Below, piece by piece: positions 3,780 through 29,300 of a stretch of 64,000 nucleotides of DNA (position 1 is the stretch's first letter; each line of letters opens with the position of its first letter). The notes under the pieces were generated by a model. It was not told where the DNA came from. It was given only the letters and a program-made list of their open reading frames with translations, and did not search any database. The position numbers and the translations under genes are program-made. The stretch comes from Corallococcus macrosporus (GTDB lineage Bacteria > Myxococcota > Myxococcia > Myxococcales > Myxococcaceae), in assembly GCF_017302985.1 (NCBI RefSeq), contig NZ_JAFIMU010000002.1:124001-188000 (forward strand). Reading direction: 5' to 3'.

Positions 3780-4706
3780 ATGAAGTCCTTCCACCGTCAT
3801 GTCCTGCTGGCCTGTCTGTTTCTCTCTGCGTGCTCCAAGCCCGCGCCGCCCACGTCCGTGAACCTTCGAAAGACCTTCCGCACGCAGTTGAAGGTGGAGC
3901 CCGAGCAGCGCATTCCCGCGCCCACGCCGCGAAAGGAGCTGTTCGAACTGGTGCGCTATCCCGCGCCGCTGGGCACGAACGCGGCCTACGTCACGCCCGT
4001 GCGGGAAGGCGCGAAGCGGCCCGCGGTGGTGTGGATCCACGGTGGCATGGACTTCGGGATCGGCGCCCTGGCGTGGGCGCATTCGTCCCGGAGCAATGAT
4101 CAGAGCGCGCGGGCGTTTCGTGAGGCGGGGCTGGTGTTGATGCTGCCGTCCTTGCGAGGGTCGAACGACAACCCGGGCGCGCGTGAGTACTTCCTGGGCG
4201 AGGTGGATGACGTGGTGGCCGCCATCGACTTCGTGGCGCAGCGCCCTGACGTGGACCCCGCGCGCATCTACGTCGCGGGCCACAGCACGGGAGGCACGGT
4301 GGCGCTGATGGCGGCGGTGCTGTCGCCGCGCTTGAAGGGAGCCTACGTGTTCGGCCCGGTGCACGACGTGTCGGAGTACGCGCACTACGTCCCGCTGCTG
4401 GGACAGGCCCGTGGGCCGGAGCTGTGGATGCGCAACCCGGTGAGCTACGTGGAGCACCTGCGCGTGCCCACGCAGGTCATCGAGGGCTCGGACCACGGGA
4501 ACATGGACGCATTCGAACCGCTGCGCGCGGCGGCGAAGGGCGCACCGCTGTCGTTCCTCGCCGTGCCGGGTGCCACGCACTTCAGCGTGCTCGCGCCCGT
4601 GACGGAGCTGCTGGCGAAGCGGCTCATGGAAGCGAAGGCGGACGCGCCCACGGTGATGCTCACGGACGCGGAGGCCCGTGAGGCCGTGGCCGCTGAGCAG
4701 GAGTAG
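3780..4706 (+). CDS. Alpha/beta-hydrolase lipoprotein (prolyl-oligopeptidase/dienelactone-hydrolase-like)
   Basis: The 308-residue protein begins with a lipoprotein signal ending LFLSAC, so it should be lipid-anchored at the outer face of a membrane. The body is an S9/dienelactone-like hydrolase with an oxyanion region VVWIHGGMDFG, nucleophile elbow AGHSTGG, acidic region EGSDHGNMD and a likely catalytic His in VPGATHFSV. The ATG at 3780 was chosen because it starts the signal peptide; the longer frame upstream runs through the met leader. Substrate is unknown. Its stop directly abuts a remnant of the former end of the convergent GST gene at 4707. Confidence 0.8.
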   Translation: MKSFHRHVLLACLFLSACSKPAPPTSVNLRKTFRTQLKVEPEQRIPAPTPRKELFELVRYPAPLGTNAAYVTPVREGAKRPAVVWIHGGMDFGIGALAWAHSSRSNDQSARAFREAGLVLMLPSLRGSNDNPGAREYFLGEVDDVVAAIDFVAQRPDVDPARIYVAGHSTGGTVALMAAVLSPRLKGAYVFGPVHDVSEYAHYVPLLGQARGPELWMRNPVSYVEHLRVPTQVIEGSDHGNMDAFEPLRAAAKGAPLSFLAVPGATHFSVLAPVTELLAKRLMEAKADAPTVMLTDAEAREAVAAEQE

Positions 4707-4742
4707 TCAGCGCACGTTCGCGTTCGCGGAGTAGGGCGGCAC
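4707..4742 (-). pseudogene. Detached original 3' end of the GST gene
   Basis: On the minus strand 4742-4707 reads VPPYSANANVR followed by TGA. The intact GST gene 2.75 kb away has VPPYSANAHVFRDSP at its C-terminus. This piece is therefore the ancestral last codons of the GST gene, left next to its old convergent neighbour when the intervening DNA was inserted. Confidence 0.75.
4713..4742 (+). repeat. Left 30-bp direct repeat flanking the insert
   Basis: This 30-bp stretch matches 7497-7526 with one mismatch, and its last 24 bases (4719-4742) are identical to 7503-7526. It lies in the old GST 3' end. The repeat is compatible with a site-specific attachment core or a long target duplication. 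Confidence 0.8.
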
Positions 4743-4769
4743 TGTGCTTGACCCGCCGGGCCAAGCACA
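4743..4769. repeat. 27-bp imperfect palindrome at the left islet junction
   Basis: TGTGCTTG at 4743-4750 is inverted as CAAGCACA at 4762-4769, with CCCG/CGGG between them and a single mismatched pair. It begins at the first base after the left direct repeat. It may be an element end or a recombinase site, or simply part of the transposase remnant. Confidence 0.5.
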
Positions 4770-5658
4770 CCTGAGGAGTGGGTGAAGGAACGGACAGGCG
4801 TAAGGCTGCCGGTGTCCCCGCGGCGCTGGGTGCGTCACGCAAATGGGAGCTGGCGCTGGAGCAGTTGGACGACGCGCTGAAGTGAGGCGTGCGTAAGCAC
4901 GTCGTGCTGGCGGATGCGGGGTATGGCAACTGCCGTGAGTTCCGCGAAGGCCTCACGGCGCGAGCACTGCCTTACCTTGTCGGAGTGCCAGGGCAGCACA
5001 AGGAGTGGCCGCCAGGAGCTACGCCGCACCGTCCGGTGAAGAAGGCGGGCGAGTACGGCCGTCCCCGGACGCGCTTTGTCGACGGCAGCGGCGTGCAGCC
5101 TTGGACGATTGAGGAGCTTGCGCGCAAGTTGCCCGAAGAAGAGTACCGCCGTGTCAGCTGGCGCGCCGGGAGTCGTGGCAGGCAGGCGTCCACCTTCGCC
5201 GCGGTGCGAATCCAGGTCGCTAAAAGCCACGTCATCCGCAATGCACCAGGTGCACCCGAATGGCTGTTGTGTGAATGGCCGCAAGGGTAATCCGCGCCGA
5301 CGAATTTCTATCTCTCGTCATTGCCGGCAGAGACGCCCCTTAAACGCCTCGTCACCCTGGCGAAGCTGCGCTGGCGCGTCGAGCGTGACTACCAGGAGAT
5401 GAAAGGCGAAGTGGGGCTGGACCACTTGGGGGCACCTGGAGAGGCTTTCACCATCACGCCACGCTCTGCATTGTGGCCCATGGATTCCTCGCTCCGTCGA
5501 TCGCTTTTCCCCCGGAGGAGGATTCCCTGGACGATGCCCCAGGTGCGTCGGCGGCTTCTGCAGTTGCTGCTGCGCCGCCGCGACCATTTTTCGCTGTGCC
5601 TCCGCAGACTCGGCGCTCGCGCTCCTCCTCGAGGATCGTCACGAATCTGATCAAATAG
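4750..5658 (+). pseudogene. Decayed IS701-like DDE transposase
   Basis: Several frames give consecutive pieces of one transposase: PEEWVKE and then KWELALEQLDDALK near 4770-4880, a stop, then a 133-codon piece at 4889-5290 with VLADAGYGNCREFREGLTAR. A further piece at about 5321-5430 has LKRLVTLAKLRWRVERDYQE and EVGLDH. A last part near 5490-5560 resembles LRRSLFPRR in yet another frame. ADAGYG with an Asp and the late RWRVERDYQEMKGE (catalytic Glu) are hallmarks of IS701/IS4-type DDE enzymes. Internal stops and frame changes show that it is dead. No terminal inverted repeats could be paired with confidence. Confidence 0.75.
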
Positions 5659-5660
5659 TA

Positions 5661-6719
5661 TCAGCCCCGCGCGAGCAACTCGAGCTCGGCGAACATGCCC
5701 GTCGCGGTTGCGAGTTGCAGCCGCGTCTCTGTCGACGCCCGCCGCCACCCCAGGTGTGTTCGCGCCACGGACTGACGTACTGCTCTATCCAAGTCTCCAG
5801 CAACAACTGCATCGAAGATGTTGCGGCTCAGACCCGTCCGGATGCGAATCTCATCGAACGCCATACCATTGTCGGTGTGAAGTTCGTGAGGGTAGAAGAC
5901 GGTGCGTGACTGCACGATAAAAGGCTCTTTTTGTAACTTGCCGATGCCAAGCACTGTTGAGAGTTCCCGGACACGTTCGGCAGGCGGACCTTTCATCTCA
6001 TTTTCTTTAAGGGCCACCGCGTTTCCCTCTCGACGTAGACCGAGTAAGTGCAACGCCGAGGCGACATTCGCGCGAGCGGCGGCGACCGCTAGGTTATCAC
6101 CCCCGTTTCCCTGATTGCGCTCGCCCTCTGCTAGCTCAATCTCCGGGTCGATGATTTGGCAGAGAGGCTTCCCGCCGCCGTGCTGAGGAATATAGACGCC
6201 AGCGACGAGGCTCTGCCCCAGGGCGTAGGGAGGGCCGACGCGCATGTTCTGCTTCTGAGGGATACCGTTGTTCAGGAGCTTGTAGAGGGTGCTCGGTGTC
6301 TGGGTGCCCTTGCATTCGATGATGTGCGCCCGGCCCTTGGTGTCGACGGCGACAAAGTCGGGACTTTTGCGCTGCCCTTTCTTCTGGGATGGCTTCAGAC
6401 TGAAAGCAGGCGTGTTGAGCGTCTTCACAAGGTACTGCGTGTGGGCGAAGTAGATGGTGTCGAGCGCTTCGAAGAGCAGAAGCGTAGTGATCCCCATTCC
6501 GAAGTCGTCGCTCAGCACCGTCTTCTGGTGAGGATCGAGTTCTGTCCACTCATGCCGGAGGTGCAGGAGTGGGCCCTTGTCCAACGCAGGCAGATAGCGC
6601 GCGCATGCCCAGCTGTTGTCGAACTCGAAGCCGAGGGCAAGAGGTGGTGCCGTGAGAAGAGCAATGAGCACCAAAACCTCACGCATGTCTACAGGGACGA
6701 GCTGTTTGTGGAGCGACAT
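5661..6719 (-). CDS. Putative PD-(D/E)XK nuclease, islet cargo
   Basis: This 352-residue protein has no family I can name. SPDFVAVDTKGRAHIIECKG (Asp121, Glu135, Lys137 from the ATG at 6719) has the D-(X)n-ExK layout of PD-(D/E)XK nucleases, often found in restriction enzymes and toxins. The N-terminal stretch DMREVLVLIALLTAPPLALG is hydrophobic and could be a core helix or a weak membrane segment. The start is uncertain: ATG 6719 and GTG 6749 both lack a clear ribosome site, and ATG 6686 is possible. It follows the 160-residue gene after 175 bases on the same strand. Composition is atypical. A DNA-cutting role is inference from the motif. Confidence 0.6.
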   Translation of the reverse strand: MSLHKQLVPVDMREVLVLIALLTAPPLALGFEFDNSWACARYLPALDKGPLLHLRHEWTELDPHQKTVLSDDFGMGITTLLLFEALDTIYFAHTQYLVKTLNTPAFSLKPSQKKGQRKSPDFVAVDTKGRAHIIECKGTQTPSTLYKLLNNGIPQKQNMRVGPPYALGQSLVAGVYIPQHGGGKPLCQIIDPEIELAEGERNQGNGGDNLAVAAARANVASALHLLGLRREGNAVALKENEMKGPPAERVRELSTVLGIGKLQKEPFIVQSRTVFYPHELHTDNGMAFDEIRIRTGLSRNIFDAVVAGDLDRAVRQSVARTHLGWRRASTETRLQLATATGMFAELELLARG

Positions 6720-6894
6720 TATCTTGGGGGGACCGGTTTCGCGCCCCACGAACTCACGTCCACATTGACCAACAGATGACGAGACACCGACACAGTCACC
6801 TCACGTCGCTAATGCGATCCGGTCATTTCCCAGAGGTACTACAGTATTTCGAGAGCGCTCCTTCGCGGCAGGCGCCCGAAATGATCGAGTAATA
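6720..6894. other. A+T-richer spacer between the two islet genes
   Basis: This spacer of 175 bases shows no open frame of merit. It is visibly richer in A and T than the chromosome around it, for example around 6835-6900. It could hold a separate promoter for the nuclease gene, but no clear boxes stand out. Confidence 0.4.
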
Positions 6895-7377
6895 TTAGCG
6901 CACCGGAAATGGCGACAGCTCTTCGAGCAGTCGCTTGGCCATCTTGAGATCCAGTTTCTTTGGTCCGTGTTGGAGCCCACCAACGAACGGTTGGAAATTA
7001 CCTGGCCCGTGGATCAGGTCGACGAGATTACGCAGCAGCGGTCCAGCATTGTTTGGGGGGAAGTAGACGACTTGGCAGGGCCAGCCTATCGGCCATCTTC
7101 GCTCGCGAGTAAGAAGGTCGTTGAAGAAGTAATTGTCAACCGTCCTGTTTGCTGGCATCTGCAACAACTTTACGGCCCCCACGACTCGCCCGCGCTGGCC
7201 TTCATTTTGGTACACATCATCGGTCCCCTCAGGGATGTAGATGGCAATCATGTCATCCGTGCCGAGGAGGTCATCGACCATTTCCTTTAACTTGACTCCG
7301 GCCTTCGCGGGGACCGCAATGTGTTCCTGCTCGGGACCCAGCCCAAACATCGCTTCAAGGTAGCGAATCGTCGCCAT
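6895..7377 (-). CDS. Unknown 160-residue protein, islet cargo paired with the nuclease
   Basis: The start is ATG 7377 because GGAGG sits 7 bases upstream; the frame extends a few codons further but lacks such a site. The protein begins MATIRYLEAMFGLG and has no membrane segment. A beta-rich centre with MIAIYIPEG, GRVVGAVKLLQMP and WPIGWPCQVVYFP loosely recalls PUA/EVE-type folds, in which a strand of the form GxxxGxxxV precedes a long loop. That resemblance is weak and unverified. It lies upstream of the nuclease gene and may be its partner, a specificity subunit or an immunity factor. Confidence 0.5.
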   Translation of the reverse strand: MATIRYLEAMFGLGPEQEHIAVPAKAGVKLKEMVDDLLGTDDMIAIYIPEGTDDVYQNEGQRGRVVGAVKLLQMPANRTVDNYFFNDLLTRERRWPIGWPCQVVYFPPNNAGPLLRNLVDLIHGPGNFQPFVGGLQHGPKKLDLKMAKRLLEELSPFPVR

Positions 7378-7410
7378 GTTTAATCCTCCAGAGGCAGACA
7401 CGGACGGGAC

Positions 7411-7479
7411 TTAGGTGTTCGCGGCCGCGTGAAGATCCTCCTCGCTCAAGTATTCTACTGCGCCTCGCTCCGTTTCCAT
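7411..7479 (-). CDS. Possible 22-codon ORF overlapping the GST stop
   Basis: ATG 7479 overlaps the GST stop as TAATG and opens a 22-codon frame beginning METERGAVEYLSEED, ending 33 bases before the ATG of the 160-residue gene. It could be the remnant of a longer islet gene, a coupling peptide, or chance. Only the overlap and its acidic composition support it. Confidence 0.25.
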   Translation of the reverse strand: METERGAVEYLSEEDLHAAANT

Positions 7480-8114
7480 TAAGGGCTGTCCCTGAACACG
7501 TGCGCGTTCGCGGAGTAGGGCGGCACGGGGCCCAGGAAGCCGGGCTGGGCCTTCACGCGCTCCAGCCACGCGCGCACGGATGGGTAGGGCACGAGGTCCA
7601 CGCCCGCCTCCGGCGCCAGGTGCGTGTACGCGTAAAGGCAGACGTCCGCGACGGTGTAGCGCTCCGCCACTAGGAACGGGTGTTTGCCCAGGTGCCGCTC
7701 CAGCGTGGCCAGCGCGCGCTCGCCGTTCTGGATGCGATTGCGGAGCACGTCGGACTCTGGCGGCTGCCGGCCGGTGAGGAGCCAGAAGCGTGCGGTGCCC
7801 AGGTTCGGCTCCACCGCGTTCTGTTCGAAGAACATCCACTGGTGCACCTGCGCCCGCGCGAAGCGGTCCTCCGGCAGGAACCGAGTGCCCTCCGCGAGGA
7901 ACAACAGGATGGCGTTGGACTCCGCGAGGAACCGCCCGGGCTCCGGCTCCAGCACCGGGATGCGGCCGTCCGGGTTCTTCGCGTGGAAGTCCGCCGTGTG
8001 GCTCTCCCCAGCGAAGATGTCCACCGGCACCAGCTCGTACGCGACGCCCAGTTGGTTCAGCAGCGTGCGGACCTTGTAGCCATTCGCGGAGGGGAGATAG
8101 TCGTAGAGGCGCAT
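7479..8114 (-). CDS. Glutathione S-transferase with a C-terminus replaced by the islet
   Basis: The 211-residue protein has an N-terminal thioredoxin-like domain (YDYLPSANGYKVRTLL, NPDGRIPVLEPE, LAESNAILLFLAE) and a C-terminal helical domain with YTVADVCLYAYTHLA. These are the hallmarks of a GST that conjugates or reduces small electrophiles with glutathione; the Ser in PSANGYK is the likely catalytic position. The last residues HVFRDSP come from the inserted DNA. The ancestral ending ANVR remains at 4707-4742. The change lies outside the fold core, so the enzyme is probably still active. Confidence 0.88.
   Translation of the reverse strand: MRLYDYLPSANGYKVRTLLNQLGVAYELVPVDIFAGESHTADFHAKNPDGRIPVLEPEPGRFLAESNAILLFLAEGTRFLPEDRFARAQVHQWMFFEQNAVEPNLGTARFWLLTGRQPPESDVLRNRIQNGERALATLERHLGKHPFLVAERYTVADVCLYAYTHLAPEAGVDLVPYPSVRAWLERVKAQPGFLGPVPPYSANAHVFRDSP
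7497..7526 (+). repeat. Right 30-bp direct repeat flanking the insert
   Basis: This is the partner of 4713-4742, inside the present GST reading frame. It encodes VPPYSANAHV on the minus strand. DNA between the two copies differs in composition from the surroundings and holds mobile-element remains. Confidence 0.8.
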
Positions 8115-26303: not shown

Positions 26304-29300
26304 TCAGCCCTCGGCGACGGCCTGCACGCTGGCGCGGTAGATGAAGATGCGCGCGGTGTTGGTGCGGGTGTCGGCGGGGACGACGAAGAAGCCCGGGGTG
26401 GGGCCCTTGAAGTCCTGGGAGAAGCCGGCCACCTGGCGGCCGTCGTTGAAGGTGACGCGAATCTTGGAGCCTTCCGCCTGCGGCTGACGCGCGCCCGCGG
26501 CGAGCATGAAGAAGATGGCCTTCACGCGCTTGCCGGGGATGCGCTCCGGGGCGAAGCCGCTCTGCTGCTCCAGGGAGATGGTGTCCTCCAGGAGGTCCGC
26601 GTCGCGGATGGTGCCGCGCTTCACCTGACCTTCGACGGTGTGGATGATGACGCGGTGCTCGCCCTCCACGAAGGAGCTGGTGGCGGAGGCGAAGCCGTCC
26701 CCGGGCACTTCGAACAGCGTGTCTTCCGTGGGGCGCAGGTGGTTGGCCGTCACGGGCGTGGCGGCCATGACCGGCGTCGCGGCGGCGACGGGCGCCGGGC
26801 CCCGGACGGTGGGAATGGCCGGGGAGGAGGGCGTCAGCCGGGCCACGGGCGTGGCGGCGAGTGACAGGGCCGGCGGGGGCGGCGGAGGAGGAGGCATGGC
26901 CGCGACGGGCAGCGCGGGGACGACGTCCTCGACGAGCTCGATGTCGGCGACGGGGTCGGACTCGGGCTCCACCTCCTCGACGTCGAGGGCGGGCGTGGCG
27001 TCGAGCTCCGCGTCCACGTCGACGGCGGGCTCCTCCCAACCGGAGGACGGAGCCTCGGCGGCGGGCTGGGCGGCCCAGGTGGGGGCGGTGATGTCGGTGA
27101 GGGAGACCTCTTCCTCGGCGACGGGCTCGCTCCACCCGGCGGCGGGGGCCGCGGGCGCGGAGTCGGCCATCCAGTCGGGCTGGGCCTCCTTGGGCGCGCC
27201 CCACGTCGAGCGTGCGGCGGGGGCTTCAGGGGCGGCCCACTCCGGCGTGGTGGGCGGCGCCTCCCACTCGGAGGCGGCCTCCTCGACGGGGGCGTCCCAC
27301 GGCTGCTGGGCGCCGGAAGGCTGGGCCCAGGCGGCTCCGGCATTGGGGTCCTCGGAGGCGGCCCATTCCGGCTGAGCGGCGGGAGCCGAAGCGTCCGTGG
27401 CGGACCAAGGCTGATCCGCGCCCGGAGTCACATCCTCCGTGGACGCCCATTCCGGTTCGGCTTCGATGGGGGCTTCCTCGGAGGCGGCCCACTCCGGCTG
27501 AGCGGCGACAGGCGCGGCGTCCGTGGAGGCCCACTCGGACTGAGCGGCGACGGGCGCGGCCTCTTCCGTGGCCCATTCAGGCTGGGCTTCGATGGGCGCG
27601 GCCTCTTCCGTGGCCCACTCAGGCTGAGCCTCGATGGGCGCGGCCTCTTCAGACGCGGTCCATGCCGGCTGAGTGGCGACGGGAGCAGCTTCTTCCGTGG
27701 CCCACTCAGGCTGGGCTTCGATGGGCGCTTCCTCGGAGGCGGCCCACTCCGGCTGAGCGGCGACAGGAGCGGCTTCTTCCGTGGCCCACTCGGGCTGAGC
27801 CTCAATGGGCGCGGCCTCTTCGGACGCGTTCCACGCCGGCTGAGCGGCGACGGGTGCAGCCTCTTCCGTGGCCCACTCAGGCTGAGCCTCGATGGGCGCG
27901 GCTTCCTCAGAGGCAGTCCACGGCGGCTGTGCTGCGACGGGCGCAGCCTCTTCCGTGGCCCACTCGGGCTGAGCCTCGATGGGCGCGGCTTCCTCGGAGG
28001 CGGTCCACGTTGGCTGTGCTGCGACGGGCGCGGCTTCTTCCGTGGCCCACTCGGGCTGCGCCTCAATCGGTGCGGCTTCCTCGGTGGCCCATTCGGGCTG
28101 AGCCTCGATCGGCGCGGCTTCTTCAGACGCGCTCCACGCCGGTTGTGCGGCGACGGGCGCGGCTTCCTCGGTGGCCCATTCAGGCTGAGCCTCGATGGGC
28201 GCGGCCTCTTCCGTAGCCCACTCGGACTGCGCTACGGCAGGCGTAGCGGCCTCTTCGGTCGCCCATTCAGGCTGGGCTTCGATAGGGGCGGCCTCTTCCG
28301 TCGAGGTCCACTCGGACTGAGCCGTGGCCGGCGTCGTGCCTTCAGCGGTGGCCCATGCGGACTGATCAGCAACCAGTGCAGTGCCTTCAGCAGCCGCCGA
28401 TTCGGACTGATCCGTAGCCGACGTGGTGTCTTCAGCGGTCGCCCACTCGGACTGCGTGGCGACCGGCGCGGAGCCTTCAGCAGTGGCCCATTCGGACTGA
28501 TCAGCGACCGGCGCAGCGTCCGTGGTGGCCCACGCGGACTGCGCAGAAACGGGAGCAGCTTCCGTGGCCCACTCGGGCTGAGCCTCGATGGGCGCGGCTT
28601 CTTCAGCGGCGGTCCACGCCGGCTGAGCGGCGACGGGTGCAGCCTCTTCCGTGGCCCACTCAGGCTGAGCCTCGATGGGCGCGGCTTCTTCCACGGTGGC
28701 CCATTCAGGCTGGGCCTCGATCGGCGCGGCCTCTTCAGGCTGAGCCTCGATGGGCGCGGCTTCTTCCACGGTGGCCCATTCAGGCTGGGCCTCGATCGGC
28801 GCGGCCTCTTCTGGCTGGACCTCAATGGGCGCGGCTTCTTCGGACGCGGTCCACTCCGGCTGGGCGGCGACCGGTGCGGCGGCTTCTTCCGTGGCCCACT
28901 CCGGCTGGGCCTCAATCAGCGCTGCGTCTTCCGTGGCGCTCCACTCGGACTGCGCGGCGACCGGTGCGGTGGCATCGGTCGTGGCCCACTCAGGCTGGGC
29001 CTCAATCGGTGCCGCCTCTTCCGTCGAGGCCCACTCGGACTGCGCGGCAACCGGTGCGGCGGCTTCTTCCGTGGCCCACTCGGACTGCACTGCAACCGGT
29101 GCGGCGGCTTCTTCCGTGGCCCACTCGGGCTGTGCCTCGATCGGCGCAGCCTCTTCCGTGGCGCTCCACTCAGACTGCGTGGCAACCGGTGAGGCAGCTT
29201 CGGTCGTGGCCCACTCGGGCTGTGCCTCGATCGGCGCGGCCGCTTCCTCAGTGGCCCACTCGGGCTGGGCCTCAATCGGCGCGGCTTCTTCGGAGGCGGT

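What the first reader, a model, noticed from the sequence alone, without database searches (positions are those of the whole stretch)
4707..7526. A 2.75 kb islet split the 3' end of a GST gene and left both the old and new ends readable
The DNA at 4742-4707 (minus) encodes VPPYSANANVR-stop, next to its original convergent neighbour. The present GST gene ends VPPYSANAHVFRDSP, where the last residues come from inserted DNA. The overlap is a direct repeat of 30 bp with one mismatch (24 bp identical), like attL/attR or an unusually long target duplication. No integrase is inside. This gives exact boundaries for a small mobile unit and suggests that the GST 3' end is an insertion hotspot.
Basis: partly seen in the sequence, partly recalled or inferred. 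Interest (0 to 1): 0.8.

Follow-up and report, generated by a model that had tools for sequence, protein, structure and literature searches.

The report
Insert that duplicated a gene's end
In a soil predator bacterium a 2.75 kb piece of foreign DNA was pushed between two tightly packed genes, copying 30 letters of a gene's end on the way in, and relatives show other cargo inserted at the same spot with longer copies.

Summary
Observation confirmed. 4713-4742 and 7497-7526 are a 30-bp direct repeat with one mismatch around 2,754 bp. None of 15 congeneric genomes has the HVFRDSP tail; 10 are empty sites with 0-10 bp between the two stop codons. So this is an insertion; the GST end was duplicated and re-ended by inserted DNA.

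"Small mobile unit with attL/attR" is not supported. The insert is a mosaic: 27-bp hairpin, IS701 3' part, gene A, a possible MITE-like IS701 relic, gene B. No integrase was found.

The site does receive other cargo. Two relatives carry AHH-nuclease/Imm11-type modules there, flanked by about 65-82 and 153-175 bp of duplicated hydrolase/GST end; three more have other inserts. Repeat length varies, so it is not an att core. A symporter-like gene end in G005 shows the same old-end/new-end pattern. In a 400-kb four-genome comparison 4 of 94 insertion places have overlaps of 30 bp or more, two of them here.

Best reading: recombinase-independent insertion with overlapping joints, kept because duplication spares both genes. 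The mechanism is inferred.

The parts
3780..4706 (+). alpha/beta hydrolase gene (308 aa), intact, left convergent neighbour
4707..4742 (-). orphan original GST 3' end, VPPYSANANVR-stop; its stop codon abuts the hydrolase stop codon with 0 bp between
   Evidence: read; for the hydrolase stop
4713..4742 (.). left copy of the 30-bp direct repeat
4743..4769 (.). 27-bp hairpin (11 base pairs, DNA fold -9.3 kcal/mol, z -3.1); no other match with up to 3 mismatches in 96 family genomes; origin unexplained
4770..5660 (+). IS701-family transposase remnant: 3' 63% of a 1,422-bp IS, with indels and an in-frame stop; right end of the IS present at 5660
5661..6719 (-). gene A, 352 aa from ATG, no family match; conserved D-x13-ExK residues (121, 135, 137) recall PD-(D/E)xK nucleases (recalled, not tested); relatives 86% identical in G070 and 45% in G015; its stop codon abuts the IS701 end
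6813..6894 (.). possible MITE-like IS701 relic flanked by CTAA/TTAG: right end 13 of 16 to the IS701 left end, left end weaker (below the scan's 12 of 16), no significant hairpin (z -0.01); the matching stretch in G070 has two 15-of-16 ends facing each other
6895..7377 (-). gene B, 160 aa from ATG, no match in Pfam, NCBIfam, PADLOC or PHROGs and none in the 95 other family genomes searched; its stop codon is part of the TTAG
7497..7526 (.). right copy of the 30-bp repeat, inside the GST gene
7479..8114 (-). GST gene (211 aa), last residues FRDSP and the stop supplied by inserted DNA

Best explanation
Foreign DNA carrying gene B and an IS701-linked gene A was joined into a junction where the hydrolase and GST stop codons touch or nearly touch (0 bp in the left half of this site and in G009, 6-10 bp in the nine other empty relatives). 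The event was recombinase-independent and its two joints overlapped by at least 30 bp of the recipient's own sequence, so the GST 3' end is now present twice. The IS701 copy was truncated, before or after insertion, and its frame has decayed. With so little spacer, most insertions without an overlap would damage one of the two gene ends, so inserts that survive here are mostly those that duplicated it. Shown: insertion relative to 10 empty congeners, duplication, mosaic content, other duplicated inserts at the site. Inferred: the joining mechanism (recircularised or one-sided recombination is my first choice), the recipient origin of the 30 bp here, and the selective filter.
For: 10 of 16 genomes are empty with 0-10 bp spacers; 6 carry inserts, of five kinds. 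Duplication length varies by insert: 30 (G000), 45 at 87% (G012), 65-82 (G005), 153-175 (G010), 13 exact and about 25 with a gap read by eye (G002), none found (G015). In G010 the hydrolase parts of the two outer copies share a TCCGCT seen in no other of the 13 aligned rows, and in G005 both copies of the symporter gene end share letters that differ from the one other genome compared, G009; this points to recipient-type DNA. The same old-end/new-end pattern is seen at that symporter-like gene. No Ku match in the own genome, which disfavours classical end joining. In E. coli, conjugated plasmid DNA gave target duplications of 109-950 bp in 14 sequenced clones, ascribed to single crossover of recircularised DNA (PMC3240628, section 12 read).
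Against: No donor molecule or intermediate is seen. The recircularised model needs a stretch of this junction on the incoming DNA, which is not shown. Only 4 of 94 insertion places in the 400-kb comparison have overlaps of 30 bp or more, so the process is not general. Another locus of the AHH module (L095) has no long repeat, and the G015 insert at this very junction has none. The GST parts of the outer G010 copies differ from each other more than the hydrolase parts do. The left repeat may have been trimmed by a later deletion, so 30 bp may be a lower bound.
Confidence: 0.5

Rival explanations
1. Site-specific integration: the repeats are attL/attR of a small element mobilised in trans by a tyrosine or serine integrase that targets the GST 3' end.
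For: Insertion at a gene 3' end with a duplicated core, and the gene kept open by an element-supplied stop. Another gene 3' end in G005 shows the same pattern.
Against: Duplicated stretch differs in length and position among inserts at the same site. No recombinase found in the insert. Left insert edge is inside an IS701 gene.
Confidence: 0.12
2. Decayed remnant of an older, longer-repeat insertion: an AHH-type module with about 175-bp repeats sat here first, and later deletions and an IS701-borne insertion replaced it and trimmed both inner repeat edges to a 30-bp overlap.
For: G005 and G010 have such modules at this junction. The left edge of the window insert is inside IS701, as after a deletion.
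Against: BLAST of a G010 module finds only junction pieces, no module trace, in the window region. Needs extra events. G009, G013 and others are empty.
Confidence: 0.2
3. Deletion in relatives: the repeat-flanked insert is ancestral and was lost in relatives by recombination between the repeats.
For: Direct repeats allow precise loss; G009, the closest to G010 of the three genomes compared with it, lacks the G010 modules.
Against: Inserts are of five kinds in six genomes, and A and B are absent from this junction in all 15 relatives. It would still need an origin for the duplicated GST end.
Confidence: 0.06
4. Target-primed or staggered-nick insertion by an unrecognised trans-acting enzyme that leaves long, variable target duplications.
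For: Variable duplications, apparently of recipient sequence, at gene ends, with whole gene pairs as cargo in G005 and G010.
Against: No candidate enzyme was sought. Window cargo is a mosaic, not one transcription unit. Only a minority of insertions show it.
Confidence: 0.1

Closest known systems
Homology-facilitated illegitimate recombination and single-crossover integration of recircularised DNA (E. coli conjugation, PMC3240628; passages and section 12 read)
   Same: No recombinase of the insert needed; partial duplication of the target, 109-950 bp in 14 sequenced clones
   Different: There the incoming DNA was built with target homology, and true HFIR events (4 of 60 clones) gave deletions; here no homology is shown on the donor and the duplication can be as short as 30 bp
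Transposed genes flanked by target-derived direct repeats in Arabidopsis (PMC2869330; abstract read)
   Same: Ordinary genes flanked by direct repeats homologous to the orthologous target site, mostly genic; circle insertion proposed
   Different: Plant, not bacterium; no link to tight convergent gene ends in the abstract
Type VI effector-immunity arrays in Vibrio cholerae (PMC5361080; passages read)
   Same: Toxin-immunity modules accumulate at one site, with illegitimate recombination proposed; resembles the G010 double module
   Different: Anchored by homology upstream in the module; no duplicated neighbouring gene ends in the passages read; the window cargo is not a toxin-immunity pair by any match found
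IS701-family insertion sequence with CTAG target
   Same: The remnant and the CTAG-like sites match it
   Different: A 4-bp target duplication cannot give a 30-bp repeat, and the insert does not end at IS701 ends

Membership tests
Site-specific integrative element (att-flanked) | integrase or recombinase gene in the element | tested here: not met
   only an IS701 DDE transposase remnant found among the ORFs scanned
Site-specific integrative element (att-flanked) | same core repeat for inserts at the same site | tested here: not met
   30, 45, 65-82, 153-175 bp or none
Site-specific integrative element (att-flanked) | insertion at the 3' end of a gene that stays open | tested here: met
   GST kept open with new tail
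Insertion sequence or composite transposon spanning the whole insert | inverted repeats at both insert ends | tested here: not met
   left end inside IS701 next to a unique hairpin; the only IS701-left-end-like site (13 of 16) lies inside the insert at 6894; ends of other IS families were not scanned for
Insertion sequence or composite transposon spanning the whole insert | short fixed target duplication | tested here: not met
   30 bp here; CTAG at the ends of the other IS701 copies printed
IS701 family (remnant 4770-5660) | IS701 transposase profile | tested here: met
   NF033540 E 1e-21, 77.7 bits on a partial protein, under the curated 150 bits; 83-85% DNA identity to complete copies
IS701 family (remnant 4770-5660) | functional transposase gene | tested here: not met
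   N-terminal part missing, indels and a stop
Illegitimate insertion with target duplication | no conserved ends, variable overlap of the two joints | tested here: met
Illegitimate insertion with target duplication | microhomology at the joints | not tested
   donor sequence unknown
Ku-dependent end joining | Ku gene in the genome | tested here: not met
   PF02735 gave no match in the own genome; of 14 control genomes only Bacillus subtilis matched
MITE of IS701 (6813-6894) | two inverted ends and target duplication | tested here: inconclusive
   one end 13 of 16 where chance gave 12 of 16 elsewhere in the window, the other below the scan cut-off, no significant hairpin; clear two-ended form only in G070
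AHH nuclease toxin with Imm11 (G010 modules, not the window) | AHH and Imm11 profiles | tested here: met
   AHH E 1.4e-11 and 9.6e-10; Imm11 only just (22.4 against 22.1 bits, E 8.7e-5) for one of two partner genes, the other without a match; toxin role inferred

The most novel reading that the evidence does not exclude
Corallococcus has a recombinase-free or trans-acting insertion route that places whole cargo modules, toxin-immunity pairs among them, at the 3' ends of genes while duplicating tens to nearly two hundred bases of the recipient's own DNA, so that each hit gene keeps working and leaves its former end as an orphan. Old-end/new-end pairs would then be a readable fossil record of gene acquisition.
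Probability: 0.15. Interest if true: 0.72.

Novelty: new variant of a known kind. Interest (0 to 1): 0.45.

Why it matters
How foreign genes enter dense bacterial chromosomes without integrases is hard to see. Duplicated gene ends give exact joints and polarity, and this junction gives several cases in one genus, with AHH-Imm11-type modules among the cargo. If tight convergent junctions filter for duplicating insertions, that is a simple rule testable in any large genome set. Two searches aimed at this showed no paper on it: (Corallococcus, genomic islands, direct repeats) held 0 papers; (Myxococcus, target site duplication) listed 2, neither on this judging by title and start of abstract. A Corallococcus pan-genome paper (PMC6306037, listing only) was not opened.

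Tried and rejected
Classical end joining: not first choice, because no Ku match was found. IS701 transposition as cause of the repeat: rejected, CTAG stands at the ends of the other copies printed and the IS here is truncated. A dispersed repeat: rejected, two copies plus one distant match in the genome. Cargo identity: A and B gave nothing in Pfam, NCBIfam or PADLOC, one weak PHROG for A (E 0.38), no solved structure for A and three at E 0.57-0.8 for B. Structure models were poor (mean pLDDT 44.4 for A from 3 sequences, 38.8 for B from one), so no fold search was run. Genome contigs with A found no relative. A right-end DNA query (7380-7496) found two weak matches (E 0.003 and 0.009) outside the own genome, in 96 family genomes. 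The MITE reading of 6813-6894 is weakened by a fold no better than shuffles. Fisher tables use my own cut-offs and count G002 generously; I rest nothing on them. The plain count at 30 bp or more is 3 of 5 presumed events at this junction (G005 and G010 taken as one) against 2 of 92 other places in the four-genome comparison. Those places are pairwise differences without polarity, of at least 100 bp, listed per carrying genome, so a shared one is counted more than once; the G012 insert is smaller than that. In one search I used a wrong reading frame for the hydrolase; one search repeats it correctly. The symporter site has no full empty site: of 16 genomes only G009 matched beside G005, over 94 of 735 bases.
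Full report
Setting. The window lies in a genome (G000) whose same-genus relatives include named Corallococcus: contig lengths tie G010 to Corallococcus sp. AS-1-6, G007 to C. interemptor, G002 to C. exercitus and others. The genus label of G000 itself is inferred from this.

4713-4742 and 7497-7526 match in 29 of 30 bases. Markov resamples of the two boundary zones reached at most 21 of 30 in 200 trials. The motif has two copies and one 3-mismatch match in the 9.8-Mb genome. The left copy reads as the old GST end, the right one runs into the present GST, which ends FRDSP from inserted DNA. The right two thirds of the 2,754 bp have 55-60% G+C, against about 66-71% in the near flanks.

Empty sites. 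All 15 same-genus relatives have the GST and the convergent hydrolase side by side, five with an insert between (in G014 the hydrolase is internally shortened). Ten have 0-10 bp between the stop codons: 0 in G009, whose GST is the most similar, and 6 in G007, which the GST tree places beside G000. None of the 15 has the HVFRDSP tail. In the 400-kb chains the insert appears as 2,754 bp extra in G000 with an overlap of 30 bp against both G009 and G013.

What the insert is. From left: a 27-bp hairpin (4743-4769; DNA fold -9.3 kcal/mol, z -3.1; no other match with up to 3 mismatches in 96 family genomes); the 3' 63% of an IS701-family element (4770-5660), 83-85% identical to six copies in relatives, taken as 1,422 bp long from two copies in G005, with indels and a stop, and with CTAG at the ends of copies printed; gene A (5661-6719, minus), 86% identical to a gene in G070 and 45% to one in G015, the only two relatives in 96 family genomes; a possible MITE-like relic at 6813-6894; gene B (6895-7377, minus), found in none of the 95 other family genomes. 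The relic's right end matches the IS701 left end in 13 of 16 bases, where the next best place in the window has 12, and its fold is no better than shuffles. The case rests on G070, where the same stretch next to gene A has two 15-of-16 ends facing each other 83 bp apart, outside them CTAG and TTAG. A's stop abuts the IS701 end and B's stop is part of the TTAG, so A probably came beside B by IS701-type transposition; that is an inference. The left edge of the insert is thus inside IS701. It is not an element end, and the left repeat copy may have been trimmed.

Other cargo at the same junction. G010 has 5.9 kb: two tandem modules of a 664-665 aa protein with a C-terminal AHH nuclease domain plus a 215-216 aa partner, one of the two just matching Imm11. 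The modules are separated and flanked by copies of hydrolase end plus GST end (153 bp at 96% between the outer copies; 169-175 bp as chain overlap). G005 has one such module flanked by about 65-82 bp. G015 has a 2.5-kb insert without a repeat found; its GST ends VT where G004 and G001 end VG. G002 and G012 have 124 and 69 bp between the stops, with 13 bp exact (about 25 with a gap, by eye) and 45 bp at 87% duplicated. The AHH module occurs with the same limits at one other locus, in G000, G003 and G005. There it follows a stop codon without a long repeat, while G002, G011, G009 and G007 are empty.

A second old-end/new-end pair. In G005 a related module (about 75% DNA identity) sits at the 3' end of a symporter-like gene (family recalled, not tested). 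The gene body now ends AAGATAEGLRTQ; beyond the module an orphan copy reads AAGATAEELHPRRAP, and the G009 orthologue ends AASAAAEDLQPRRAP. The 63-bp repeat is 94% identical. Both G005 copies share letters that differ from G009, and the hydrolase parts of both outer G010 copies share a TCCGCT found in no other of 13 aligned rows, which points to recipient-type DNA. Against a simple duplication, the GST parts of the outer G010 copies differ, and the left and middle copies share theirs.

How unusual. Among 94 insertion places of 100 bp or more in the four-genome, 400-kb comparison, 4 have overlaps of 30 bp or more: this site in G000 and in G010, and two in G013 (198-200 and 83-90 bp). Polarity of the 94 is not resolved, a place shared by genomes is counted more than once, and one of the G013 pairs is only 80% identical, so it may be an old paralogue. 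47 loci vary in G000 coordinates, so the junction is one of many variable places. What stands out is the share of duplicating inserts.

Mechanism. Two joints that overlap duplicate what lies between them; joints that leave a gap delete it. At a junction with hardly any spacer, gaps and most clean cuts damage a gene, and overlaps spare both. I think this filter, acting on rare recombinase-independent insertions, explains the site (0.5). A laboratory analogue is single crossover of recircularised DNA in E. coli, giving duplications of 109-950 bp (PMC3240628, section 12). In pneumococcal transformation, alternative pairing between chromatids makes much larger tandem duplications (PMC3784515, abstract). 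Transposed Arabidopsis genes with target-derived flanking repeats are another parallel (PMC2869330, abstract). No Ku match was found, which speaks against classical end joining. att-type integration is disfavoured by the changing repeat and the lack of an integrase.

Limits. One genome per species; the insert is known from one genome. The GST tree leaves 6 of 13 inner branches open, so the number of independent events is a presumption. Genes A and B remain without a tested function.

Noticed in passing
L034 1216-6892 (G010): Tandem AHH/Imm11-type modules with nearly identical N-terminal parts of the large protein and diverged C-terminal ends and partner genes, like an effector-immunity array built by repeated insertion.
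   Followed up: partly
L097 4221-8368 (G005): Symporter-like gene whose 3' end was duplicated around an AHH-Imm11 type module; old and new C-termini both readable.
   Followed up: yes
window 6813-6894; L052 6339-6421 and 7578 on: IS701-type ends in CTAG-like sites beside gene A, clear in G070 and weak in the window; IS701 targets may coincide with TAG stop codons.
   Followed up: partly
window 4743-4769: 27-bp hairpin between the left repeat and the truncated IS701, without a match elsewhere in 96 family genomes at up to 3 mismatches; origin unexplained.
   Followed up: partly
G013, joined stretch: 223689-225141: A single short-chain dehydrogenase-like gene (by reading, untested) inserted before a dnaE-like gene (by reading) with an 83-90 bp repeat.
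   Followed up: partly
L043 6553-6981 (G014): Hydrolase gene internally shortened, only the end parts matching.
   Followed up: no
window 28958-29038: The only tRNA gene found in the window, tRNA-Leu (cag), far from the insert.
   Followed up: no
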